The notes under the pieces are model-generated. The model worked only from the letters and a program-made list of their open reading frames with translations, was not told where the DNA came from and did no database searches. A program made the translations under genes and the position numbers. Shown here one piece after another: positions 6,171 to 18,259 of a stretch of DNA of 64,000 nt (position 1 is its first letter; every line of letters starts with the position of its first letter). Source of the stretch: Novipirellula herctigrandis (GTDB lineage: Bacteria; Planctomycetota; Planctomycetia; Pirellulales; Pirellulaceae); NCBI GenBank assembly GCA_007859835.1, contig SJPJ01000001.1, forward strand, positions 2,589,257-2,653,256, in the 5' to 3' direction.

Positions 6171-8162
6171 CTAAATGCGTCGGATAAAATCGGCCGCATA
6201 ACTCCTCACTTGGGTGCCGTTGAGAACGTGAACCATGCGAAGCTGTTGGACTTGTTCGTCGCTAAAGGAACTGAGCGGCACATGCACCAAATGCTTGTGA
6301 TGTCGACGAGCGAGTCGTTGCCAACCGCTGCCGGGCGGCAACGCCGACAACAGTGCGATTTCGCGGCCTCGCGAATGCAAACACGCCGCCGCAATCAAAC
6401 GCTCTTCCAACGTCTCTGCATAATCAAGTCGCGAGTCGATCCAAATATCGGGTATCACCACCGGAGGGTAAAGAAACAACGCTCCGCCATAAATGCCCAA
6501 GCCGATCCCCGGCCCAACCAATTCGTCCTGAAAATCCGATGCAAAGAACGCTAACGTTGATTCGTCTTTGTGTTCGGCAAACCATGTTGTTCGCCATGGA
6601 TACTCTCGTGGATCCGCCGGTGAATCAAACATCATCACACAGGCATCCAAATCACCGCGACTTGGAGGGACCACTTTCACGTAGATTTGTTTCTCGTACC
6701 AATGGCGAAGCGTATCGCGAATATCAATTCCATCCTTCACGCTAGAGGTAAACTTTTCGGTACGCGCTAAGTCGTTGCCGATAATCGCGCGAGCGCGATC
6801 GAAGACGCGAGTTCGGAAATTCTCGATGCGTTCATCTTCGGGCGGATAACTGCATTGGCTATGCGGATTCCATCGATACTTCCATCGATCTTGTTCGTAT
6901 TTATTAGGGCGACGCTGTAACTTAATCGTTTGCCAAGTGATTGGCGGCCCCGGTAATCGACTAACCAATGGGACCGTTTCGCCATCGGGCAACCGGCCTT
7001 GGTCAATCCCCAAGGTGACTTGGTGCATCGGATCGCGGTCCACTGTTTCAGCGTTGCCAAACGCGTATTGGTTCGCGACTTCCGCCACATGAAGCGAGAA
7101 TTGATCGCCAAGGATCTGTTTGGTTGCCGTGACAATTGCCACCAAATCGGGGGTCATCCGGCGATGAATCAAACAGAGGTTGCGGATGTAGGTCAAACAT
7201 TTAGACAGCAACAGTGGAGTGATGCGGCGAGCTCGGCTGCCCAACTCTTCACGATAGCTTTCACGTGCGGCGATCAACAATTCCTTGACGCCGTCAATTT
7301 GCAGATCCTCGTCTTCTTCCAACTCTGCACGCGCACGTTCATACAATCCGGTGATGTAGGGCAATTCACCGAACAGGAACATCAGCGTCCGATCTTCCAC
7401 CGAGAATCGCTCGGCTGGCTCGACATAATCATGCTCAGGCATTTCAATCTCAGCCGCCTGGTTGGTTATATTGTATGATCGTGAGCTTAGCTGAGTGTAT
7501 GCTTCACGGATCCATGGCCAATGCAAGACACTGCAAACGAACAAGATTCGCTCATGCCGCGATTCCAATTCCTTCAGTCGCATCGCCATATACATGATCC
7601 GCTGCTGCGTTTGATGATCCGACGGCCTCGCAATACTGGGTAGAACCGCCGCGGCAAACACCTCCGGAGAGACATGACGAACGGCGAACGGATCAGGCAT
7701 CACACTTGAACAAGGCAGAAACGGATCGGTTTCCAGATCGACATAAGCACGCGAAATATGCTCGCCCATCGCGGCCCGAATCGCCATGATCACCGGTTGG
7801 CAAGGGTCAATAGGAACGTAGCTGTGCGGAAATGTTTCGAGATCGGAATCGTCATCCTCATTCGTTTCGCCCCAGGCCGGTTCGGACCAATCATGATCCC
7901 CTGCCAATGGCTCAAAGCGGGGGGTGGTCGGCTGAATGACGATCGAAGGCCGAGGAAGTTCCAAGACCGCTGTTTCAACCGGATGGCGGAACGATTCGGG
8001 CAACGGAACCGCGAGACAATCGAAGGGATTTTCGAGAAACCAACGTCGGACGATCAACGAAAATTGGCCGCTTCCGTGGATCACGGGCAACACCGAAATT
8101 CGGTCGCCAATCTGTAACAGATGTGGCGTTTTGTCATGGGGAGAAAAAATCACGAAAAGCAC
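6171..8162 (-). CDS. Large conserved-looking protein, possible distant DUF5682/TraB-like member
   Basis: A 663-residue soluble protein without signal peptide or membrane segment. I do not recognise it securely. The N-terminal half has an order of motifs that recalls DUF5682/TraB-like proteins: a hydrophobic strand ending in an acidic residue (PFDCLAVPLPESF, near 50), a segment YVPIDPCQPVIMAIRAAMG (near 115), YVDLETD shortly after, then RIMYMAMRLKELESRHERI followed by LFVCSVLHW (near 195-220). The C-terminal half includes FRTRVFDRARAIIGNDLARTE (split by my reading near 465) and a last part rich in aromatic residues. It starts with GTG at 8162; the next start candidate is a GTG three codons later. 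It precedes the aminotransferase gene on the same strand. Function is unknown. Confidence 0.7.
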   Translation of the reverse strand: MLFVIFSPHDKTPHLLQIGDRISVLPVIHGSGQFSLIVRRWFLENPFDCLAVPLPESFRHPVETAVLELPRPSIVIQPTTPRFEPLAGDHDWSEPAWGETNEDDDSDLETFPHSYVPIDPCQPVIMAIRAAMGEHISRAYVDLETDPFLPCSSVMPDPFAVRHVSPEVFAAAVLPSIARPSDHQTQQRIMYMAMRLKELESRHERILFVCSVLHWPWIREAYTQLSSRSYNITNQAAEIEMPEHDYVEPAERFSVEDRTLMFLFGELPYITGLYERARAELEEDEDLQIDGVKELLIAARESYREELGSRARRITPLLLSKCLTYIRNLCLIHRRMTPDLVAIVTATKQILGDQFSLHVAEVANQYAFGNAETVDRDPMHQVTLGIDQGRLPDGETVPLVSRLPGPPITWQTIKLQRRPNKYEQDRWKYRWNPHSQCSYPPEDERIENFRTRVFDRARAIIGNDLARTEKFTSSVKDGIDIRDTLRHWYEKQIYVKVVPPSRGDLDACVMMFDSPADPREYPWRTTWFAEHKDESTLAFFASDFQDELVGPGIGLGIYGGALFLYPPVVIPDIWIDSRLDYAETLEERLIAAACLHSRGREIALLSALPPGSGWQRLARRHHKHLVHVPLSSFSDEQVQQLRMVHVLNGTQVRSYAADFIRRI

Positions 8163-8341
8163 TCTTTTCTAGCGAACCAAAATTAACTAACATCGTATCC
8201 TAACGCTCCAAGGTCGGCATTATTTCCAGCATTCCTTCGCATAGAGATTCCCATCTCCATGGGCGATTGCCCTCCCGCGAAACCTGGCTCTGACCTTCGA
8301 ACACGGATCATTTTTTCGTTCGGAAGCACCAAGTTATTCTT

Positions 8342-8379
8342 AAAAACACAGTTCCCAATTGGGAGCTGTGTTTTTTTTT
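8342..8379 (-). terminator. Intrinsic terminator downstream of the MscS-type gene
   Basis: A near-perfect palindrome: ACACAG + TTCCCAATTGGGAG + CTGTGT, with one T-G wobble, flanked by five A on the left and nine T on the right. Read on the minus strand it is a stem followed by TTTTTA about 20 bases after the mechanosensitive channel stop codon. It would also work in the plus direction, although no plus-strand gene ends here. Confidence 0.85.
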
Positions 8380-8397
8380 GCCTTTATCGCCGGTTCA

Positions 8398-11300
8398 TCA
8401 CTTCATATGCACGTCCCTTTGTGGGAACGGGATGGAAATGCCTGCTTCGCGGAACGCTTGAAGTACGGCGATGTTGATTTCATGCGTCACCCCCACGCGG
8501 CGATCTAAGTTCGACAAGTAGAATCGAACCGCATAATTCAATGAATTGTCCCCAAAATTGTCAAAATTGATGAGTGGCGCGGGATCGTTCATCACGTCCG
8601 GATGCTCACTGACGACACGCAGCAAAATTTCCTGGACTTGATGAGGGTCGCTGTCGTAGTCAACACCAACATTGATCGTCAACCGGTTGATCACGTTAGA
8701 CAACGACCAATTTAGCAACTTTTCCGTAATCAAGTCCTTATTTGGGACGACTAACTCTTTTCGATCCCAACTTGTGACCGTCGTCGCTCGCATTTGGATT
8801 CGCGATACGATGCCGGTGGTTCCGTCGATTGTCACAACATCCCCCACTCGCACCGGTCGCTCAAGCAATAAAATGATACCCGAGACAAAGTTTGCCACGA
8901 TTTCCTGCAACCCGAAACCGAGACCTACCGAAGCGGCTGCAAGCAACCACCCGAGCTGAGTCCACGGAATACTCAACAAGTTCAAAATCAGGATAGCCGC
9001 AATGACAGTCAAAACGTAGCGCAGAATGGTGGTCAATGCATAGCGTGCACCGCTATCAAGCGACGTTCGCCGCAGAATCGACAGCTCCAACAAGCTCGGC
9101 AAATTTCGCACGGCAAAAATAGCACCAACGATCGTCACAAAAACGTATATCAGGTCGCGTAGCGTCACCGCTTCGACGGTTTCGCCCATACCCACCGTCC
9201 ACAATTCAACTTGGTTGAATCGTTTGATCGCTGGCAACACATCGCTCCAAATGAACAACAGCCCAAAAAACGCAACCGAAGCTGCGGTGACATGAAACAG
9301 TTGCCTCGTTTGACGATCAAGCTTAGGAAGATCCGCTGCCTCCTCCTCTTGAATCTCAATCCCAATGTCACTGGTCAACCCTTCGGCAGACGACGCTGTC
9401 AGGGCGGACAATTTCTTTTCGCGGCGTTCCATCGCTTGTCGGCGGGCGACATCTCGGTAATGCAGACTTAGAACACGAAAAATCAACGCAGTTAGAAGCA
9501 ACACAAATACCAAAAACAAAATTGACGCTTGCAGCAATTCGCCAAACGTAAATGCGGTATCAAGAAATCCCATAAAAGCGAAAACCGCAAAACTGATTGG
9601 CAACCCGATGGCCACCAACCAAATTAAACGCCGCCATCGGTAACTTTGCGAATCGGGATTCTCGCGGCGTGTTTGCACATAGATCGGACTATTCACCCGA
9701 AACATCAAATGGTGAAACGTAGCGGTTGCAATAAACAAAGCGATCGCTGTCAAGCGAGAAAGACTCGTCCGAACCACCTCATTAGGATGCTCGCGGAATA
9801 CCCACATCAAGAAAACGAGGATCGCTCCGGTCACCGTGTACCAGCGCAAATGAAACCGAATCAATGAACGCACCGGTTCGTCCCATCCAAAATGTGCTTC
9901 GGCGAGTCCATAGGGACGGCAAACATGTTTCATCAATTCGCGAGACGCAACGTAGACGGCCGTAAGGACGCATGCACTGCCAACACCATGCACAAACACC
10001 CCGCCGCCGATTTGGCTTTTCAAAAGCCATCCCATAACCGCAAAAACGACGGGCCATGCTAACGATAAAATGACGGTTGCCAACAACGCTTTGGCGGTCG
10101 GAGCAAACGTCGTTCTATAGAGAGAAGCTTCCTTGGCGGTCTTTTCCAAAACATGCCGACAACGAGGCCGATAAACAAACAAGCCAATCGCCACCAAGGC
10201 GGCAAGCATCGAAGAGATCGGTTGGCTGAATGCACCGAGAGTCCATTGACTCAACACACCACGCCAATGACTTGGCTTCGTCATCCATGCCGTCGCAGGG
10301 ACGATTTCCTTCAACTCGGCAACCGAAAATGCGGGTGAACTACGAATCCAAAACAGATTTTCATCCACAAACCTAATGTAGTGGTCGATCGCTTGCCGAA
10401 GTTCCCGACGGTGGGTGTCAGCATCGAGCATTGTTTGAAGCAGCGAATTTTGAGCCACCAAAGTGTCCGACAACAATGACTTTTGCTGCCGTAGTAGCTT
10501 CTGCTTTTGCACGCTTTCCGGTGAATCGCCAAGCGACTCAAGCTGGATTTCAACTTGATCAAGATTGTCCTCCAACTCAAACGCATTGATTTGATACTGT
10601 TGGATTTTTTCACGCAAATCGGTTCGCGGCTGAAACTTTGCACGCAGTTGTTGAAATTCACTTTGTTTATCACGAAGCATGACACCGAGTGCGTCGGTCA
10701 AGCCAACTTTTTCGAGTCGCTCTTCGGAGTTTTCTTGAGCCGCTTTGACGAGTCGATAACTCTGTTCGGATTCAGCGAGTAAACTCGAGGCTTCCGCCGC
10801 TTGCCTAACGAGGTCTTGTTGCTGGCGAGCGATCTCGATGTTCTGTTTCGCAATCGGCTTGAGTTGCTCGGGAGTTTCAGCAAGCATTTCCGTCAAAGAT
10901 TCGATTCGATCAGCGACCACGTCCCGCTGCCGCTCGATCAAAGCCGCTGCAAGTTGGTTCGCCTCTGCTTGCAAGGCCGTCACTCGCAGGCCGGACAATT
11001 GAACTTGTAGCGGCAGCAGGTCCACCGTGGACCCATAGGCGGCTTGTTCCTTACTTAACTCCGCCAATTTTGCCGCACGTGATTGTCGGCTCGCTTTCAA
11101 CTGAATGACTCTTGCACGCGTTTGCAACGGAATCTCGTTGGGCGGAGCTTGTCGCGACAATTGCTCATCAATTTTTTCGAGTTCCTCTTCGGTAGCGATC
11201 CGCTCAGCCGGAATTTCGCCCAGTCGCTCTTGCCGACGCGACCGCTCATCCTCAAGCAATTTTTTCTGTTTGGTTGCAAGCTCCAGTTCTGATTTCTTAG

Positions 11301-11727
11301 CCGTCAAACGTTGCTTGATGGACTCGACGGTTGCATCGGCATCCAGCGGTCCAAGCGCAGGCAACGGTTCGTCAAGTTTCAGCTTCGTTTGACGGATTTG
11401 ATCAGCGGCATCAAGAACCATTTTCTCATAGTCGCTAGCGTTTTTCACGCTGGCGTCGGCGGCCTGCAATTTCTGCTGGGCTTGTTGATAAAGATCCTCC
11501 AACGCGGTTTTGACGCTCGGCTTGAGGCCATCGTTTGCTTTGACTTCTGCTAACCCCGTCGCGACCGCCTCCTGATCGATGTCCGCTTCCGTGACCACCA
11601 CGGGAGCGGGTCCATCGGCGTTTTCCGATGCTTGTGTCAGCTGAGCCTGGCCTTGCGCCGGCAAAAGAGCTGAAAAGCACATCACTAGCAGGGCGAGAAA
11701 AATCGCGTTTCGTAGAGCCAAAAGCAT
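8398..11727 (-). CDS. MscS-family mechanosensitive channel, long MscK/KefA-like form
   Basis: A 1109-residue inner-membrane channel. From ATG 11727 it begins with a signal peptide (NAIFLALLVMCFSALLPAQGQA), then about 450 residues of periplasmic coiled coil rich in Gln, Glu, Leu and Arg, then roughly ten membrane segments from about residue 510. The pore and beta domain are clear near the C terminus: GLGFGLQEIVANFVSGIILL, RPVRVGDVV, and VPNKDLITEKLLNWS. This is the architecture of MscK/MscM rather than the small MscS: it should open on membrane tension during hypo-osmotic shock. A TTG nine codons upstream is possible, but ATG 11727 puts the signal peptide directly at the N terminus. It is transcribed away from the sigma-factor operon at 12 kb and ends at a strong terminator. 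Confidence 0.92.
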   Translation of the reverse strand: MLLALRNAIFLALLVMCFSALLPAQGQAQLTQASENADGPAPVVVTEADIDQEAVATGLAEVKANDGLKPSVKTALEDLYQQAQQKLQAADASVKNASDYEKMVLDAADQIRQTKLKLDEPLPALGPLDADATVESIKQRLTAKKSELELATKQKKLLEDERSRRQERLGEIPAERIATEEELEKIDEQLSRQAPPNEIPLQTRARVIQLKASRQSRAAKLAELSKEQAAYGSTVDLLPLQVQLSGLRVTALQAEANQLAAALIERQRDVVADRIESLTEMLAETPEQLKPIAKQNIEIARQQQDLVRQAAEASSLLAESEQSYRLVKAAQENSEERLEKVGLTDALGVMLRDKQSEFQQLRAKFQPRTDLREKIQQYQINAFELEDNLDQVEIQLESLGDSPESVQKQKLLRQQKSLLSDTLVAQNSLLQTMLDADTHRRELRQAIDHYIRFVDENLFWIRSSPAFSVAELKEIVPATAWMTKPSHWRGVLSQWTLGAFSQPISSMLAALVAIGLFVYRPRCRHVLEKTAKEASLYRTTFAPTAKALLATVILSLAWPVVFAVMGWLLKSQIGGGVFVHGVGSACVLTAVYVASRELMKHVCRPYGLAEAHFGWDEPVRSLIRFHLRWYTVTGAILVFLMWVFREHPNEVVRTSLSRLTAIALFIATATFHHLMFRVNSPIYVQTRRENPDSQSYRWRRLIWLVAIGLPISFAVFAFMGFLDTAFTFGELLQASILFLVFVLLLTALIFRVLSLHYRDVARRQAMERREKKLSALTASSAEGLTSDIGIEIQEEEAADLPKLDRQTRQLFHVTAASVAFFGLLFIWSDVLPAIKRFNQVELWTVGMGETVEAVTLRDLIYVFVTIVGAIFAVRNLPSLLELSILRRTSLDSGARYALTTILRYVLTVIAAILILNLLSIPWTQLGWLLAAASVGLGFGLQEIVANFVSGIILLLERPVRVGDVVTIDGTTGIVSRIQMRATTVTSWDRKELVVPNKDLITEKLLNWSLSNVINRLTINVGVDYDSDPHQVQEILLRVVSEHPDVMNDPAPLINFDNFGDNSLNYAVRFYLSNLDRRVGVTHEINIAVLQAFREAGISIPFPQRDVHMK

Positions 11728-12031
11728 GGTGAAATCATCGAGGTTGCTGGGCAAATTGGATAGCAGCGTGCATTTTCAACCATTGCCCCCCCTCTCTGCA
11801 ACCGCCATCCGGATTTCAGCGAAACCCCAGACCACCGTTGGGGTTAGTCAATCAACCGCCGTACACGACGCAGCCTCGCTCGCTTTTCAGAAATCAACAG
11901 GCGACAATGCCAAAGCAGACGTGTTCAGCCCGGTGAACAAACATTAGAATATAGATTCCTTCCCTCACGGGGTTTCCCAAACACCACTTTTTTGCGATTC
12001 CGCTGCATTGGCTGTTAGCGATTCGACTGCG
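11728..12031. other. Divergent intergenic region, 304 bp
   Basis: It separates the MscS-type gene (minus) from the sigma-factor operon (plus) and must carry both promoters. I saw an AT-rich TAGAAT at 11945-11950 that could be a -10 box for the operon but no good -35 box before it. No gene is supported here. Confidence 0.5.
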
Positions 12032-12661
12032 ATGCGTTATCAACAGTCCGATCCGGACGTTCGTTTGATGCTGCGCGTACGCGACGATGACGCCGGAGCG
12101 TTCGAAGAACTGGTGCGACGGTACGAACCGAGATTGGTGCGTTTGATGCAAACCATAGGGCCAAGTCGTGAATTGGCCGAAGACCTAACGCAAGAAACCT
12201 TCCTGCGCGTCTACCGGGCGAGAAAACGGTACGAACCGGGAGCCAAGTTTTCGACATGGCTGTTTACGATCGCCGGTAATGTCGCACGCAATTCCGCACG
12301 TTCGGTTTCGCGGCGTCAGGAAGTCAATGAAGTCGATGCACCGCGAAACCCCGCAGCTACTAGCAACGCCCAACTTCTCGCCCATACCGCGATGGAAGCA
12401 AGTGGATTGATGCCAACAAGATTGGCCGAAGGAGAAGAACGGGCCGAGATCGTTCGCATGGCCGTCTCCTCTTTGAGCGAACGACAACGAATGGCCCTGA
12501 TGTTGTCTCGCTTTGAAAACATGAGCTACGCCGATATCGCCAAGGCGATGGATTTGACTCCCAAGGCTGTCAAATCGCTGCTGAGTCGGGCACGAGTGAA
12601 TTTGAAGGAAGTGATCCAACCTTACATGGAATCAGGAACCATTCCGAAGGAGGTTCAATGA
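12032..12661 (+). CDS. ECF-type RNA polymerase sigma factor
   Basis: A 209-residue sigma-70 family protein with only regions 2 and 4. Region 2 covers about residues 22-95: AFEELVRRYEPRLVRL, EDLTQETFLRVYRARKRYEP and FSTWLFTIAGNVARN. A linker with an Asn/Ala-rich insert follows, then region 4 at about 140-200 with SLSERQRMALMLSRFENMS, YADIAKAMDLTPKAVKSLL and SRARVNLKE. ATG 12032 puts the protein start just before region 2; a TTG eight codons upstream is the alternative. Its stop codon overlaps the next start (ATGA), with GGAGG inside its end serving the anti-sigma-like gene, so the two are translationally coupled. It probably controls its own operon, by analogy with other ECF pairs. Confidence 0.92.
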   Translation: MRYQQSDPDVRLMLRVRDDDAGAFEELVRRYEPRLVRLMQTIGPSRELAEDLTQETFLRVYRARKRYEPGAKFSTWLFTIAGNVARNSARSVSRRQEVNEVDAPRNPAATSNAQLLAHTAMEASGLMPTRLAEGEERAEIVRMAVSSLSERQRMALMLSRFENMSYADIAKAMDLTPKAVKSLLSRARVNLKEVIQPYMESGTIPKEVQ

Positions 12662-14055
12662 TGAGTACCAGCCTGCTGTCCGACGAAGCTCCTGTGGATC
12701 CCGATGACGAACTCCTAGTCGCCTATGTGGACGGTGAACTCGATAGCCCTTCACGCAATGAACTCGAAGAGCGATTGCTTCGCGACGATTCCCTTCGCCG
12801 ACGTCTACAAGAGCTACAAGAAGGCTGGGACCTGCTAGACAATTTGGCCACTGCGACGCCAAACGAAAAATTGGTGGAGTCGACGATGGAGTTGGTCGTA
12901 GCCGATTTGGTGGCACCAAAAATCGCGAAGCCGGGGATCGCTTCCGCGTACCGACTGCCCCTCATGACTGCCGCAGCATGCATAGCGGGTATCCTTGCAA
13001 CGATAGGTGTGATTTGGGCGATTCGCAATCACAATTATCAATCACAACTCGCTGATTTGGCGATTGCTGAAAATATCGATGCATATTACTACGGCAGCGA
13101 TTTGCAATTGATGCGTGATTTAGCGATCAATGAATCGTGGAGCAAAATGATTTTGGCGATGCAAGAAATCGGTGATGTATCGACCCACACGCCATTGGTC
13201 GCGGCAACCGATTTGGATGAACGGGAAAAGCAGATTGCGAACTTACCGTTGGCTGACCGTGCCCAACTTGATTCGCGGTGGAAACGATTCACACGTTTAG
13301 CACCAGAAGATCAGCAGCGACTTCGCGAAACGGCCGAAGCGGTTCGTCGTCAACCTCAACCCGAGCGATTGCTTGAGACAATGCAAGCGTACGCGGGATG
13401 GCGAGAAACACTCTCAAGCGACCTTAGGGATCAAATCAAAAACAGCGATATCGATCAGCGACGTGATGTGATCCGGCAGGCGATCGATGAATCGCAATTA
13501 GCATTGTCACGTCAATCGGGAGCGATATTGTCCGACGAAACGATCGAACGAATCGATTACGCGTTACACCGAATATTGCACCAGAGACTTGCACAGAAAA
13601 TTCCAAATCTAATTGATTTTCGTTCACGGATAAAGAAGTTTTTCAGCCCTGATGCCGTCGACATGGCATCGATTGGCGCGATGGTCGCGAACGACCCGGG
13701 ACGAACCGATCGCCGATCGAGCGGACGGCTCGGCTTGCTTCGCGGTGTTAGCGATCGACCGGATCCGTTGAGTCACGGAGAATTAGCAATGATTGAATCA
13801 ATGCTGACCGATGCTGACCGCGAGATGCTTGATATGATCGCCGGAAATCCTCGCGACCCGTTTATCGAATCGGAGACATTGCGTTTTTGGGCCGAAGAGA
13901 CGCTTCGCCGAAAAATGCCTTGGCGAGAAGAGGACCCGCGAACTTTGATCGAGCGGTACGAACAAATCGATGACCCTGAATACCGAGAAACACTCGATTT
14001 GTTGCCTCCAAAAGCGATGCTCGATCGACTCACCCCCGAGCGGCACAGGCCCTAA
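12658..14055 (+). CDS. Membrane protein with zinc-less anti-sigma-like N terminus
   Basis: A 465-residue protein that overlaps the sigma gene by four bases and has the strongest Shine-Dalgarno site of the region (AAGGAGG, 12647-12653). Residues about 15-65 read like the helical sigma-binding part of an anti-sigma factor (DDELLVAYVDGELDSPSRNE, then LEERLLRDDSLRRRLQELQE) but lack the HXXXCXXC zinc motif. One membrane helix follows near residues 100-122 (LMTAAACIAGILATIGVIW). The remaining roughly 340 residues, expected on the far side of the membrane, are charged and helical with several Arg/Asp/Glu-rich stretches. Position and topology suggest it holds the sigma factor and senses an envelope signal; the sensor part is unlike any domain I know. 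Confidence 0.8.
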   Translation: MMSTSLLSDEAPVDPDDELLVAYVDGELDSPSRNELEERLLRDDSLRRRLQELQEGWDLLDNLATATPNEKLVESTMELVVADLVAPKIAKPGIASAYRLPLMTAAACIAGILATIGVIWAIRNHNYQSQLADLAIAENIDAYYYGSDLQLMRDLAINESWSKMILAMQEIGDVSTHTPLVAATDLDEREKQIANLPLADRAQLDSRWKRFTRLAPEDQQRLRETAEAVRRQPQPERLLETMQAYAGWRETLSSDLRDQIKNSDIDQRRDVIRQAIDESQLALSRQSGAILSDETIERIDYALHRILHQRLAQKIPNLIDFRSRIKKFFSPDAVDMASIGAMVANDPGRTDRRSSGRLGLLRGVSDRPDPLSHGELAMIESMLTDADREMLDMIAGNPRDPFIESETLRFWAEETLRRKMPWREEDPRTLIERYEQIDDPEYRETLDLLPPKAMLDRLTPERHRP

Positions 14056-14081
14056 CACCTAGCAACGCGAGAAATTTGAAG

Positions 14082-14330
14082 ATGGCGGTGAAACTTGGTC
14101 CTATCCGAGACGCCGAGAACCGAATCCGGCGTGATTTCATCGATTTCGCTCGATTGTGGGGCGATGTGCGCCAAGATTGGTTGGATGATCGGTGTCGCCA
14201 ATTCGAACAAAAACACCTTGCCTCACTCGGCCCCAGCTTGAATCGGTTCACTGCCGCGCTGAGCGAATTCTATGAGGTCGTGCGGCGTGCCGACGAGGCG
14301 CTGCAAGATAACGACCGCAAGGATTCATAG
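14082..14330 (+). CDS. Small helical protein, possible WXG100-like partner of the FtsK-type ATPase
   Basis: An 82-residue protein without signal peptide, predicted by eye to be two long amphipathic helices: a first from about residue 5 to 38 (FARLWGDVRQDWLDDRCRQF) and a second from about 46 to 74 (FTAALSEFYEVVRRADEAL), with a Gly-Pro turn between (SLGPSL). Size, helical hairpin plan and Trp residues recall WXG100/ESAT-6 secretion substrates, but the exact W-x-G turn motif is absent. It sits 26 bp after the anti-sigma-like gene and 29 bp before the FtsK/SpoIIIE ATPase, so it is almost certainly in the same operon. The TTG two codons upstream is an alternative to ATG 14082. It could also be a cytosolic adaptor. 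Confidence 0.75.
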   Translation: MAVKLGPIRDAENRIRRDFIDFARLWGDVRQDWLDDRCRQFEQKHLASLGPSLNRFTAALSEFYEVVRRADEALQDNDRKDS

Positions 14331-14359
14331 CCGCTCATTCATCGATTACACTAGGAAGG

Positions 14360-17300
14360 ATGAAAGACAACTCTGTCCATCCAACAGGGCTCCTTAGCCC
14401 GACTCGTCAATCACGTTTGCTCAAAGGGATCCGCCAGCGATTCGAATCAAGCGTTACCGATCATGGTGCGCTTGCTCTGCGTCATGCTTCGCAAATCGAC
14501 GAACAGAAACAAACTTTCGATTTGCGCCGCCAAGAGAAGACTGACGAGTGTCGTCTACTGCGCCGCGATACATTGAAAACGTGGGACGAAGCCGAGGAAA
14601 TCCTCATTCGTCAATACGAAGCTTTCGCAATCCAAAATCGCGACGAGCAGAACCGCTTGACGGCGATATTTCGTCGCAAGTCTGCGGAAGGAAAAGCGAA
14701 AATTGAGCACAAAGTGGCGGCTCGTTGTCAGGCAGTGGAGTATCAATATGCCCAACGAAAGAACCGACCAGGACAACAACGCGATAAAGAGCTCTCGGAA
14801 ATCGACAACGCGATCCAGCCAATCATCCGCAGTTTGCAGCTTGGCCGAGAATTGACAGTGGAAAGACTGGACCATTTGCCAACGGTCCCTCCGCCGGAAA
14901 CGCCCGAAGAAGACCAACGGGTTCCACCGCCAAAAAACACGAAAGAAACCGTCAATTCCATCAATGAATTGACAAAGCGGTGCGAAGAAACCGTGTTGCT
15001 AATGTATGCAGGCTTGGCGTCGAAAATCATCGACTCCTACTATTTACCCGGCACGGTTGTGCTCGTTTGTATCCTTTGGGTCATCGGAACTTATCTCTAT
15101 CAACCTCAAACGCCATCACTGGTTGTCGCTGGGGTGGGGACCGTGATCACGATTTTGATTGGCTTCATCGCTTACTTCATTTTGATGTGGCCGCTAAAGA
15201 AGTTAACCCGTCGACTCTATCCTATCGTCGAACGACTGGCCGCCGCAGCGGACGAGTGCGCACAAGTCGGTCGCGAGCTTTCGATACAAACCGCCTCCGT
15301 CGCTTCGGCCGATTTGCTCGCACAGCGGCAATCGCATCTTGCTTCTGCGGCGCGTTGGAAAACGAAACAACTTGATCAACTTGAAAAAGACTTGGAGATC
15401 GAACAACAGCATGCCCGCCGGTCGCTTGTTGAATCATTGCATACCGAAAACGAGAATTTTGCAGCCAAACGGACCCGCATCATGGATAGCATGCGAATGC
15501 GTGCCGATGCAGTCGCAAATCAAATCACCGGCGAATTGGCCAGAAACGCCGAACAACTGCAAAACGAACGCGATGCATCGGAGACGCGCCGCCGGAATGA
15601 GTGCAGACATTTGGTTCAACGACTCGAGCAAGGCGTTGAGCACGGCTTTGATCGGATGACCCAAGCAACACAGCAAGTTGAAAATCAATTTCCAAAATGG
15701 GAAACGGTAGTCGCTCAACCACCGCTATCGGCGAACGGCATCGATTTTGTGCCAGTAGGCTCATTGCAAGTCAATCACCATTTGAAGGAAGTCTTCCAGC
15801 ACCCTGGCGTGGAATCCACTTTCGGTGATTCGTTTCATAGCATTCCGATTCCGGAGACGTGCCCGGTTGTACTACACCGCCGTTTGCATAGCGGACTGAT
15901 CATCACAGCACCGCCTTCGTTTATGAACCGAGCGATCGAAACCGCCCACCAAATCCTTTGGCGATTGCTATCCGGATCGCCGGCCGGACAATGCAAACTG
16001 ACGCTATTGGATCCGCTTGGACGAGGTCAAAACTTCACTAGCTTCATGGCACTCGCCGATCATGATCCATCGATTGTCGGGCATCGCGTGTGGACAAGCG
16101 ACGCACAAATCAACGAGCGGTTTGCGGAATTGTCTCAGCATGTCGAGGACGTTTTGCAAGCCAGCCTTCGCGATCGGTTCGAGCGAATCGAAGATTACAA
16201 TGAGTTGGCCGGATCGATGGCCGAACCTTACCGCGCCGTTGCGGCGATTGGATTCCCGGAAGGGTTGACACGCGAAGGCTACAAGCACTTACTAGCCCTC
16301 GTCGAAAGTGGGCTTCGTTGTGGCATCTTTTTGATTCTTGTGTGTGACTCCACGCGACCGTGGCCAGCCGATATGCCAATGCCCAATTCAGAAAAAGCGA
16401 TGCGTCTAGCGATCGACCAGGCGGGTGATTGGCATGTCACCAGCGATGGGCTCGACGAACTGCCGTTTGCACCGATGGAATTGCCTTCGGGTAAACTCCG
16501 CGACGCATTAGTCGAAAAAATTGGAACCGAAGCGGTTGAAGCTTCGCGAGTGGAAATCCCGCTGGAAAGTATTCTTAACCCCGACCAAGCCGGATTGGGA
16601 AATGCCTCCGATGGCGTTGATATTCCTGTCGGTAGCCAAGGAGCACAACGCGTCCTTGATTTGGATCTGGGCGAAGGGGTCCGGCAACATGTCCTAATCG
16701 CGGGCAAGACAGGGTCCGGCAAAAGCACCCTTCTTCACGCGATCATCACTTCGGGCGCGTACCGATATACTCCCGATGAGTTGCAATTCTACTTATTGGA
16801 CTTCAAAAAGGGCGTCGAATTCAAACCGTACGCGGACGAGTGCTTTCCGCATGCACGCGTGATTGGAATCGAAAGTGAACGGGAATTTGGACGCAGTGTA
16901 TTGCAACGACTGGACGCGGAACTGCAACATCGCGGTGAAAAGTTCCGGGCAGCAGGTGTTCAAGAGCTTGGCGAGTATCGAGCGCAGACCGGCTCGGTCA
17001 TGCCAAGAATCATGTTGGTTGTCGATGAATTCCAAGAGTTGTTCGTGCGCGACGACCGGTTGGCAGGTGATTGTACAATGTTGCTTGATCGGTTGGTTCG
17101 ACAAGGTCGATCGTTCGGGATGCACGTGGTGTTAAGCAGCCAATCGTTGGCCGGTGCATACTCGCTGCCACGTGCTACGCTCGGCCAAATGGCGGTGCGG
17201 ATCGCCATGCAATGCAGTGAATCGGATGCGGCGTTGATTCTGGCCGACGATAACACCGCTGCTCGTTTAATCAATCGACCAGGCGAAGCGATCTATAACA

Positions 17301-18259
17301 ACGCGGGTGGTTTGATCGAAGGAAATCAACCGTTCCAAGTTGCATGGTTGTCTTCGTCGGCACACCGCAATCTATTGTCCCAGATCGCAAAACGCGACGG
17401 GAAATTTGTCAAATCATTGCCACCCGCAGTCGTGTTTGAAGGGAACCGTCCCTGCCGATGGACGCCGCTGCTCGCCGACGCCGCGGAAGATTCAGCCGCC
17501 CCGCAAACGCTTCAAGGGCTATTGGGCGAAGCTGTTGAAATTGGCCCGCCCGTTTCGGTGAAGTTGACACGAGACACTGGGCGGAATTTGTTAGTCATCG
17601 CGCCTCCCGATTCTCGCGGTGCCGTGCTCGCCACATGCTTAGCAAGTTTCCAGCACAACGCCACTCGATTAGAAGTCATCTATTTTGACGGCAACCGAAT
17701 GGACGATGGCGAATCATTGTCGGGTTGGCTCAGCGAGGCCGGAATCTCCGCAAAGACGGTCAAGCTACGGGACGCGGAGCAGGAAATAATCAAGGTTCGC
17801 CAGATGATCAAAGAACGGGGTGAACGAGATACCGAGAGTGAAGGAACGCCGCCACCAGTGCTAGTAGTAATTGATCCACTCGAACGGTTCCGAGAATTAC
17901 GACAAGAAGAATCGTTTAACTTCTCGTTGGATGCTGCCAGTAGTCCCATGAGCGGATCGGTAGCGTTGCAAGAGACGCTTCGTGACGGCCCACCGGTCAA
18001 CGTGTTTGTCGGTGTCGTTTGTGGCAGTGGTGAAACTTTGACGAGATGGTTGCCGCGAACGGCACAACATGATTTGGAGTTGCGAGTTCTGGGCCGGATG
18101 AACGCTGCAGATTCATCGCTATTAATTGACAACCCGATGGCCTCCGAATTATCGGCTGCGACGATGCTAATGTACGATGACGCCGACGGACAAATCCGAA
18201 AGTTCCGTCAATGTGACCGCCCGACTGCTAGCGATGTGGCAAAGTGGCTCAGCGAGTAA
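14360..18259 (+). CDS. FtsK/SpoIIIE-type multi-domain ATPase with coiled coils and two membrane segments
   Basis: A 1299-residue protein. Residues about 25-150 are a charged coiled coil, two membrane helices follow at roughly 227-247 and 253-277, then a second coiled coil up to about 460. Three ATPase-like units come after. The first (about 500-650) has a strand and loop HSGLIITAPPSF in place of a P-loop. The second is intact FtsK: HVLIAGKTGSGKST near 775-788, and Walker B IMLVVDEFQEL near 880. The third (about 1075-1290) has NLLVIAPPDSRG instead of a P-loop and a Walker B-like VLVVIDPLERF near 1167. Tandem FtsK domains with degenerate copies behind membrane helices are the plan of EssC/EccC of type VII secretion, whereas FtsK itself has four helices and a DNA-binding gamma domain, which is absent. 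It may move proteins or DNA; the former is favoured by context. Confidence 0.88.
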   Translation: MKDNSVHPTGLLSPTRQSRLLKGIRQRFESSVTDHGALALRHASQIDEQKQTFDLRRQEKTDECRLLRRDTLKTWDEAEEILIRQYEAFAIQNRDEQNRLTAIFRRKSAEGKAKIEHKVAARCQAVEYQYAQRKNRPGQQRDKELSEIDNAIQPIIRSLQLGRELTVERLDHLPTVPPPETPEEDQRVPPPKNTKETVNSINELTKRCEETVLLMYAGLASKIIDSYYLPGTVVLVCILWVIGTYLYQPQTPSLVVAGVGTVITILIGFIAYFILMWPLKKLTRRLYPIVERLAAAADECAQVGRELSIQTASVASADLLAQRQSHLASAARWKTKQLDQLEKDLEIEQQHARRSLVESLHTENENFAAKRTRIMDSMRMRADAVANQITGELARNAEQLQNERDASETRRRNECRHLVQRLEQGVEHGFDRMTQATQQVENQFPKWETVVAQPPLSANGIDFVPVGSLQVNHHLKEVFQHPGVESTFGDSFHSIPIPETCPVVLHRRLHSGLIITAPPSFMNRAIETAHQILWRLLSGSPAGQCKLTLLDPLGRGQNFTSFMALADHDPSIVGHRVWTSDAQINERFAELSQHVEDVLQASLRDRFERIEDYNELAGSMAEPYRAVAAIGFPEGLTREGYKHLLALVESGLRCGIFLILVCDSTRPWPADMPMPNSEKAMRLAIDQAGDWHVTSDGLDELPFAPMELPSGKLRDALVEKIGTEAVEASRVEIPLESILNPDQAGLGNASDGVDIPVGSQGAQRVLDLDLGEGVRQHVLIAGKTGSGKSTLLHAIITSGAYRYTPDELQFYLLDFKKGVEFKPYADECFPHARVIGIESEREFGRSVLQRLDAELQHRGEKFRAAGVQELGEYRAQTGSVMPRIMLVVDEFQELFVRDDRLAGDCTMLLDRLVRQGRSFGMHVVLSSQSLAGAYSLPRATLGQMAVRIAMQCSESDAALILADDNTAARLINRPGEAIYNNAGGLIEGNQPFQVAWLSSSAHRNLLSQIAKRDGKFVKSLPPAVVFEGNRPCRWTPLLADAAEDSAAPQTLQGLLGEAVEIGPPVSVKLTRDTGRNLLVIAPPDSRGAVLATCLASFQHNATRLEVIYFDGNRMDDGESLSGWLSEAGISAKTVKLRDAEQEIIKVRQMIKERGERDTESEGTPPPVLVVIDPLERFRELRQEESFNFSLDAASSPMSGSVALQETLRDGPPVNVFVGVVCGSGETLTRWLPRTAQHDLELRVLGRMNAADSSLLIDNPMASELSAATMLMYDDADGQIRKFRQCDRPTASDVAKWLSE

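What the first reader, a model, noticed from the sequence alone, without database searches (positions are those of the whole stretch)
12032..18259. Four-gene operon pairing an ECF sigma system with an EssC-like ATPase and a small helical protein
Sigma factor, coupled membrane anti-sigma-like protein, 82-residue helical protein and FtsK/SpoIIIE-type ATPase are co-directional with gaps of -4, 26 and 29 bases. Tandem FtsK ATPases next to small helical proteins are the signature of type VII secretion, but no other Ess/Ecc component is present, and the regulatory pair is not part of known systems. It may be a minimal planctomycete translocation system under envelope-signal control.
Basis: partly seen in the sequence, partly recalled or inferred. 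Interest (0 to 1): 0.82.

Follow-up and report, generated by a model that had tools for sequence, protein, structure and literature searches.

The report
Minimal WXG100 export module in planctomycetes
The small helical protein and the ATPase are half of a conserved four-gene module that resembles type VII protein secretion, while the neighbouring sigma factor pair appears to be there only through a rearrangement in this genome.

Summary
The four genes exist as described, but are not one conserved operon. The 82-residue protein ("S70") and the EccC-like ATPase belong to a four-gene module: S90 (WXG100 protein), M180 (helical, no known family), S70 (a WxD hairpin), ATPase. That order holds in 71 of the 80 best-scoring S90 loci, from Planctomycetota, Verrucomicrobiota and Chloroflexota. 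In the window genome S90 and M180 lie together 2.1 Mb away. Of 149 family genomes, 82 have ATPase and S90, 4 only ATPase, 1 only S90, 62 neither. The sigma pair adjoins the ATPase in 1 of 94 loci, the window's own; its orthologues in close relatives lie elsewhere. The ATPase aligns collinearly with EccC over three domains and has one P-loop, in the middle one. YukC was found in 0 of 30 genomes, YukD in 2 of 30. A 2012 footnote already noted WXG proteins with such an ATPase in planctomycetes. M180 carries extra C-terminal domains in 8 of 78 loci, so it may be cargo. Best reading: a minimal T7SS-like exporter. Export is inferred, not shown; the active-domain tree is unresolved.

The parts
12008..12661 (+). 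ECF-type sigma-70 factor (217 aa from TTG 12008, 209 aa from ATG 12032); judged not part of the module
   Evidence: adjacency to the ATPase seen only here; start from conserved upstream bases
12658..14055 (+). Anti-sigma-like protein, 465 aa, one hydrophobic segment (residues 100-124), long C-terminal part; judged not part of the module
   Evidence: NF052375 E=2e-9, below cut-off; hydropathy; orthologues unlinked in relatives
14082..14330 (+). S70: short WXG100-like helical hairpin, 82 aa
   Evidence: AF2 pLDDT 93.9, helices 6-32, 36-46, 49-81; family in 58 of 60 ATPase-bearing genomes; profile match to S90 E=6.9e-6, probability 84.5%
14178..14186 (+). W33-L-D35, the W-x-D motif at the bend of the hairpin
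   Evidence: W and D invariant in the 26 aligned members (26 of the 35); place in the model
14360..18259 (+). EccC-like membrane ATPase, 1299 aa
15026..15202 (+). Two adjacent hydrophobic, probably transmembrane segments of the ATPase (residues 223-247 and 250-281)
   Evidence: hydropathy only; a further segment at 643-663 also passes the threshold there
15827..16429 (+). First, degenerate ATPase-like domain (about residues 490-690), aligned with the EccC region before D1; limits approximate
   Evidence: hhalign; no P-loop
16595..17344 (+). Middle ATPase domain with the only P-loop (residues 746-995), aligned with EccC D1
16703..16729 (+). P-loop GKTGSGKST, the only G-x4-GK[ST] motif of the protein
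   Evidence: 84 of 85 family proteins have exactly one such motif
17477..18214 (+). Third, degenerate ATPase-like domain (about residues 1040-1285), aligned with EccC D2; limits approximate
   Evidence: hhalign; no P-loop

Best explanation
S70 and the ATPase are the split-off half of a four-component module that works like type VII secretion: S90 (WXG100), M180 (helical), S70 (WxD hairpin) and ATPase. Proposed mechanism: S90 and S70, paired with themselves, with each other or with M180's N-terminal helices, form a composite targeting signal that docks on a membrane-anchored ATPase, whose single active domain (the EccC D1 equivalent) drives export of M180, with or without a C-terminal domain, across the inner membrane. 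The sigma/anti-sigma pair is a neighbour by rearrangement. Shown by computation: gene order, co-occurrence, hairpin model of S70, WXG100 membership of S90, collinearity with EccC, single P-loop, position of the sigma pair. Inferred: dimers, docking, oligomeric motor, export itself, M180 as cargo.
Confidence: 0.7

Rival explanations
1. The module is not an exporter but an intracellular stress or conflict device: the EccC-like ATPase remodels protein or nucleic-acid complexes, and the WXG100-like proteins are cytoplasmic adaptors.
For: A Rhodococcus plasmid carries a related set next to TerD genes, with a TerD domain at the ATPase N terminus. The CoCoNuT paper describes similar ATPase/WXG100 genes in RNA-targeting islands (passages). 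YukC and YukD are absent or rare.
Against: Every one of 85 aligned ATPases has at least one hydrophobic segment before residue 600, whereas the CoCoNuT relatives are said to lack transmembrane domains. Beside the ATPase no gene other than S90, M180 and S70 recurs in more than 7 of 54 loci; those other genes were not annotated.
Confidence: 0.2
2. The four-gene unit of the window works as read: an ECF sigma and anti-sigma control the exporter in response to envelope signals.
For: Tight spacing on one strand. Co-transcription in this one species is possible after the rearrangement. Two module loci without the ATPase, L079 and L128, have a sigma-like gene a few genes away.
Against: 1 of 94 ATPase loci, the window's own. 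Orthologous pairs lie without S70 or ATPase in five relatives' stretches of 18-19 kb. S90 and M180 sit 2.1 Mb away. No shared promoter motif was evident by eye, which is not a statistical test. ECF sigma genes are common in planctomycetes (general knowledge), so a nearby one is weak evidence.
Confidence: 0.08
3. The ATPase is a DNA translocase of the FtsK/SpoIIIE kind and the small proteins are incidental.
For: FtsK_SpoIIIE is its top Pfam family (AAA_22 also passes its cut-off). The active-domain tree does not reject grouping with FtsK (p-AU 0.26). With the family's own active-domain profile one FtsK scores 73 bits, within the range of EccC D1 domains (66-88).
Against: Three domains collinear with EccC against one shared with FtsK; operon and co-occurrence with a WXG100 protein; EccCa 110.9 bits against FtsK 27.2; PDB EccC E=3.3e-36 against FtsK E=2.6e-9.
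Confidence: 0.04

Closest known systems
[quoted passage not shown] passages seen)
   Same: Three-domain ATPase with only the middle one active, WXG partner, planctomycetes and verrucomicrobia named; called apparently mobile versions of T7SS
   Different: The passages seen do not mention M180, the second WxD hairpin, the four-gene order or splitting over distant loci
EssC-like ATPase with two WXG100 proteins, one with and one without WxG, in Type III-A CoCoNuT islands (PMC11090510; passages seen)
   Same: Three ATPase domains with only the central one predicted active, N-terminal coiled coil, a pair of WXG100-like proteins; the paper credits Anantharaman 2012 (not held) for the operon also standing alone
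   Different: Those ATPases are said to lack transmembrane domains and sit in defence islands; here the ATPases have hydrophobic N-terminal segments and the operon includes M180
Helicobacter HP0062 and HP0066 (PMC3397514 and PMC4978471; passages seen)
   Same: HP0062 is a hairpin with WRD in the bend and the best PDB match of S90; the pair is described as paralogous to a minimal type VII set
   Different: The genes between HP0062 and HP0066 were not compared here
T7SSa, T7SSb and T7SSc-j (PMC11217815; abstract and Discussion read)
   Same: EccC/EssC-type ATPase plus WXG100 protein as the common core
   Different: T7SSc-j ATPases are said to have four NTPase domains; here EccC D3 has no counterpart in the alignment. 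YukC not found and YukD rare

Membership tests
Type VII secretion system (general) | EccC/EssC-type ATPase with tandem FtsK-like domains and N-terminal membrane segments | tested here: met
   hhalign 680 columns E=1.8e-28 with EccC over three domains; hydrophobic segments. One domain fewer than EccC; active-domain tree unresolved
Type VII secretion system (general) | Linked WXG100-family protein | tested here: met
   S90 matches PF06013 in 16 of 16 aligned members, and in the window genome with 34.3 bits against a cut-off of 27.3; in the operon elsewhere, unlinked in the window genome
Type VII secretion system (general) | ATPase-dependent secretion of the WXG100 protein | not testable with these tools
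   needs an experiment
T7SSb (Ess/Yuk) | EssB/YukC membrane protein | tested here: not met
   PF10140 in 0 of 30 ATPase-bearing genomes; Bacillus subtilis control positive
T7SSb (Ess/Yuk) | EsaB/YukD ubiquitin-like protein | tested here: not met
   PF08817 in 2 of 30 (G353, G056), not in the window genome; Bacillus subtilis control positive
T7SSa (ESX) | EccB, EccD, EccE and MycP | not tested
   not searched
FtsK/SpoIIIE DNA translocases | Whole-protein similarity to, and placement with, FtsK | tested here: inconclusive
   only one domain aligns (246 columns); FtsK is its own group at 100/99, but grouping with it is not rejected, p-AU 0.26
WXG100 (for the window's small protein) | Short helical hairpin with W-x-G in the bend | tested here: inconclusive
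   hairpin met; motif is W-x-D; TIGR03930 matched by 12 of 26 members at E up to 0.1, the window protein at 0.07, below cut-off; profile match to S90 E=6.9e-6
ECF sigma / anti-sigma pair | Sigma regions 2 and 4 with an adjacent membrane anti-sigma | tested here: met
   the anti-sigma model score is under its cut-off

The most novel reading that the evidence does not exclude
A minimal four-gene type VII-like secretion system is widespread in Planctomycetota, Verrucomicrobiota and some Chloroflexota and needs no other dedicated machinery: one three-domain ATPase, a WXG100/WxD pair, and M180. M180 is a new effector-carrier family, built like LXG proteins, whose N-terminal helices bring variable C-terminal domains (metallopeptidase, nuclease-like, Imm33-like) to the ATPase.
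Probability: 0.35. Interest if true: 0.85.

Novelty: new variant of a known kind. Interest (0 to 1): 0.62.

Why it matters
Type VII secretion is usually described as a machine of Gram-positive bacteria and mycobacteria with several membrane parts. A conserved four-gene version in planctomycetes and verrucomicrobia would show what the smallest working set may be, give a candidate export route of this kind in diderm bacteria, and offer a simple system for testing how WXG100 pairs and the EccC motor work. M180 is a concrete candidate cargo.

Tried and rejected
Sigma/anti-sigma as a conserved part of the system: rejected. Promoter comparison upstream of the sigma gene and of S90: nothing evident by eye; it suggested an earlier start codon instead.

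Tree of the active domain: unresolved in two builds with long branches, so not used as evidence for EccC or FtsK. Foldseek with the S70 model: best E 0.82; the second look put HP0062 first, within the range of unrelated helical bundles. M180 against PDB: best E 0.024, to unrelated coiled or helical chains; against Pfam: nothing consistent; a weak resemblance of 43 columns to S90 (E=0.0016, probability 16%) is not relied on. A model of the ATPase core was wanted and could not be made.

Literature on planctomycete or verrucomicrobial WXG100 and type VII systems: searches; the pertinent items are under Closest known systems. Only open-licence papers are held and most listings were not opened, so absence is weak.

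Limits and rows dropped. Alignments used part of what was found: A1 16 of 34 S90, A2 12 of 34 M180, A3 26 of 35 S70, A4 42 of 85 ATPases. The 94 loci are 55 from the phylum sample, 38 from the family sample and the window; six of the 94 have no gene upstream before the contig ends. L050 and L057 gave no ATPase call from my gene caller and are not counted; ATPase loci of G219, G302 and G336 were not in that count, and about 48 of the 86 ATPase genomes of the family sample were not fetched. S70 was not called in L075 and L108, though one search finds it beside the ATPase in L108's genome. In one search at most 35 candidates per genome were scored. S90 without ATPase was tested in the family sample only; M180 in 28 genomes only. 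The genomes are related, so the Fisher value printed is not used.
Full report
What is there. On one strand the window carries an ECF-type sigma factor, a 465-residue anti-sigma-like membrane protein, an 82-residue protein and a 1299-residue FtsK-family ATPase, with gaps of -4, 26 and 29 bases as stated. The ATPase scores best with the type VII model EccCa (110.9 bits, far below that model's cut-off of 509; FtsK 27.2 bits). Hydropathy shows two adjacent hydrophobic segments at residues 223-247 and 250-281.

The ATPase family. Relatives at E up to 1e-30 occur in 60 of 392 Planctomycetota genomes and in 86 of 149 genomes of the window's family. In 84 of 85 aligned family proteins there is exactly one G-x4-GK[ST] motif; in the window protein it lies in the middle domain. 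Profile comparison aligns the last 854 residues with three actinobacterial EccC proteins over 680 columns (E=1.8e-28), pairing the three domains with the region before EccC D1, with D1 and with D2; D3 is outside the alignment. With four FtsK proteins one domain aligns, over 246 columns (E=1.4e-18). Trees of the active domain alone do not settle the matter: grouping the family with FtsK (p-AU 0.26) or with EccC D1 (p-AU 0.11) is rejected in neither case.

The neighbours in other genomes. Around 54 ATPase loci three small genes recur just upstream, in 34 or 35 loci each. I call them S90 (about 90 aa), M180 (about 160-230 aa, longer in some) and S70 (about 70-82 aa, the family of the window's small protein). 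S90 is a WXG100 protein: 16 of 16 aligned members match PF06013 at E up to 0.1, best 1.4e-11, and its profile finds Helicobacter HP0062 (E=3.2e-12) and EsxB (E=1.2e-8) among solved structures. Its bend motif is W-[RQ]-D. S70 has an invariant W-x-D in the 26 members aligned. The model of the window protein is a confident hairpin with that motif in the bend, and the S70 and S90 profiles align motif on motif (E=6.9e-6, probability 84.5%).

Conservation. S90-M180-S70-ATPase in this order on one strand is seen in 71 of 80; 7 have S90, M180 and S70 but no ATPase in the stretch held; 2 have S90 without M180. The 80 were chosen for likeness to an operon-borne query, so this is not an unbiased frequency. 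In 60 ATPase-bearing genomes S90 is found in 57 and S70 in 58; one of the three without S90 is 98% complete. Of 28 genomes tested for M180, all 19 with the ATPase have it; of the 9 without, one has a marginal match (E=0.008) inside a 1290-residue frame. In the family sample 82 genomes have both ATPase and S90, 4 only the ATPase, 1 only a partial S90 and 62 neither. The parts are kept together in genomes even when far apart: 0.4 to 5.3 Mb in contig coordinates in the eleven unlinked cases listed. This is the strongest evidence that they work together.

The window's own version. In this genome S90 and M180 are adjacent at C1:465276-466065, 2.1 Mb from the window; S90 there is the only PF06013 match over cut-off. 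In close relatives S70-ATPase is preceded by other genes, in nine loci a protein of about 510 residues that resembles HEAT repeats below cut-off in the one scanned; its orthologue in the window genome lies at C1:3184413. The sigma and anti-sigma orthologues of five relatives lie in stretches of 18-19 kb without S70 or ATPase; in the three closest the sigma is 81-84% identical. Of 94 ATPase loci only the window's has the pair next to it. Downstream the CutA and HlyD genes stay with the ATPase in two relatives, so the join lies upstream of S70. The regulatory half of the finding is thus a rearrangement seen only here, though read-through in this species is possible. Two module loci without ATPase (L079, L128) have a sigma-like gene a few genes away.

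M180 as possible cargo. In 67 of 78 M180 proteins fewer than 30 residues follow the conserved domain, in 3 there are 34 to 55, and in 8 there are 143 or more. Of the extensions scanned, Imm33-like passes its cut-off in L278 (Phycisphaerales) and in L093 (an unnamed planctomycete) and falls short in L266 and L229. In an Anaerolineales locus (L255) the extension is DUF6782, a putative metallopeptidase (E=3.2e-8, over cut-off). In a Thermoflexales locus (L227) it has a nuclease-like ExK pattern seen by eye, with no Pfam support. A conserved helical N-terminal part with changing C-terminal domains is how LXG effectors are built (abstract of PMC9600955 in a search listing). This makes M180 the best candidate cargo, by inference only.

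What is missing. YukC was found in 0 of 30 and YukD in 2 of 30 ATPase-bearing genomes, with Bacillus subtilis positive in both controls. EccB, EccD and EccE were not searched. If this is a secretion system, it lacks parts of the known ones, and how cargo would cross an outer membrane is open.

Prior knowledge. A footnote of a 2012 paper names planctomycetes and verrucomicrobia among lineages with solo WXG domains and an ATPase of three domains with only the middle one active (PMC3482391, passages). A 2024 paper describes such ATPases, said to lack transmembrane domains, with two WXG100 proteins in defence islands (PMC11090510, passages). WxG and FtsK genes are called a minimal type VII set, with HP0062 and HP0066 as paralogues, in PMC4978471 (passages). 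A Rhodococcus plasmid found here carries such an ATPase with an N-terminal TerD domain, next to proteins matching S90 (E=6e-14), M180 (E=2e-9) and S70 (E=5e-4); these E-values are for a search of seven proteins only. This ties the module to that known kind. Not met in searches or in the passages seen: the four-gene set with M180, its order across phyla, its co-occurrence over split loci, and M180's changing C-terminal domains.

Verdict. A minimal T7SS-like export module is the best explanation (0.7), a new variant of a known kind.

Noticed in passing
window 12008-12031: Bases before the annotated ATG of the sigma factor are conserved in five relatives, two of which lack that ATG; the start is probably TTG 12008.
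   Followed up: partly
L286 (Rhodococcus sp. AH-ZY2 plasmid) 7483-12913: Related module on a conjugative actinobacterial plasmid: ATPase with an N-terminal TerD domain, then M180-like (314 aa), S70-like and S90-like genes, next to TerD-family genes.
   Followed up: partly
L255 6899-7909: Anaerolineales M180 with a C-terminal DUF6782 putative metallopeptidase (HEGTH by eye), between S90 and an S70-like gene; a 211-residue protein after it was not identified.
   Followed up: partly
L227 716-1897: Thermoflexales M180 with a long C-terminal extension holding an ExK nuclease-like pattern by eye; no Pfam match.
   Followed up: partly
L093 5120-6256 and L278 M180 gene: M180 proteins fused to an Imm33-like domain over cut-off.
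   Followed up: partly
L167, L168, L170-L174, L179, L183: In close relatives S70-ATPase is preceded by a protein of about 510 residues, HEAT-like below cut-off in L173, where a DinB-family gene precedes it.
   Followed up: partly
window 8398-11754, minus strand: Large MscS-family channel gene divergent from the sigma gene; no match at the sigma loci of five relatives.
   Followed up: no
G087, G105, G137, G194, G024, G356, G251: Module genes dispersed over two to four loci while all four are kept.
   Followed up: partly
L079, L128: Sigma-like gene a few genes from M180-S70 (G024) and S90-M180-S70 (G307), far from those genomes' ATPase.
   Followed up: no
G427:C2:491920-493320: The anti-sigma orthologue of a same-genus genome shows one in-frame stop.
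   Followed up: no
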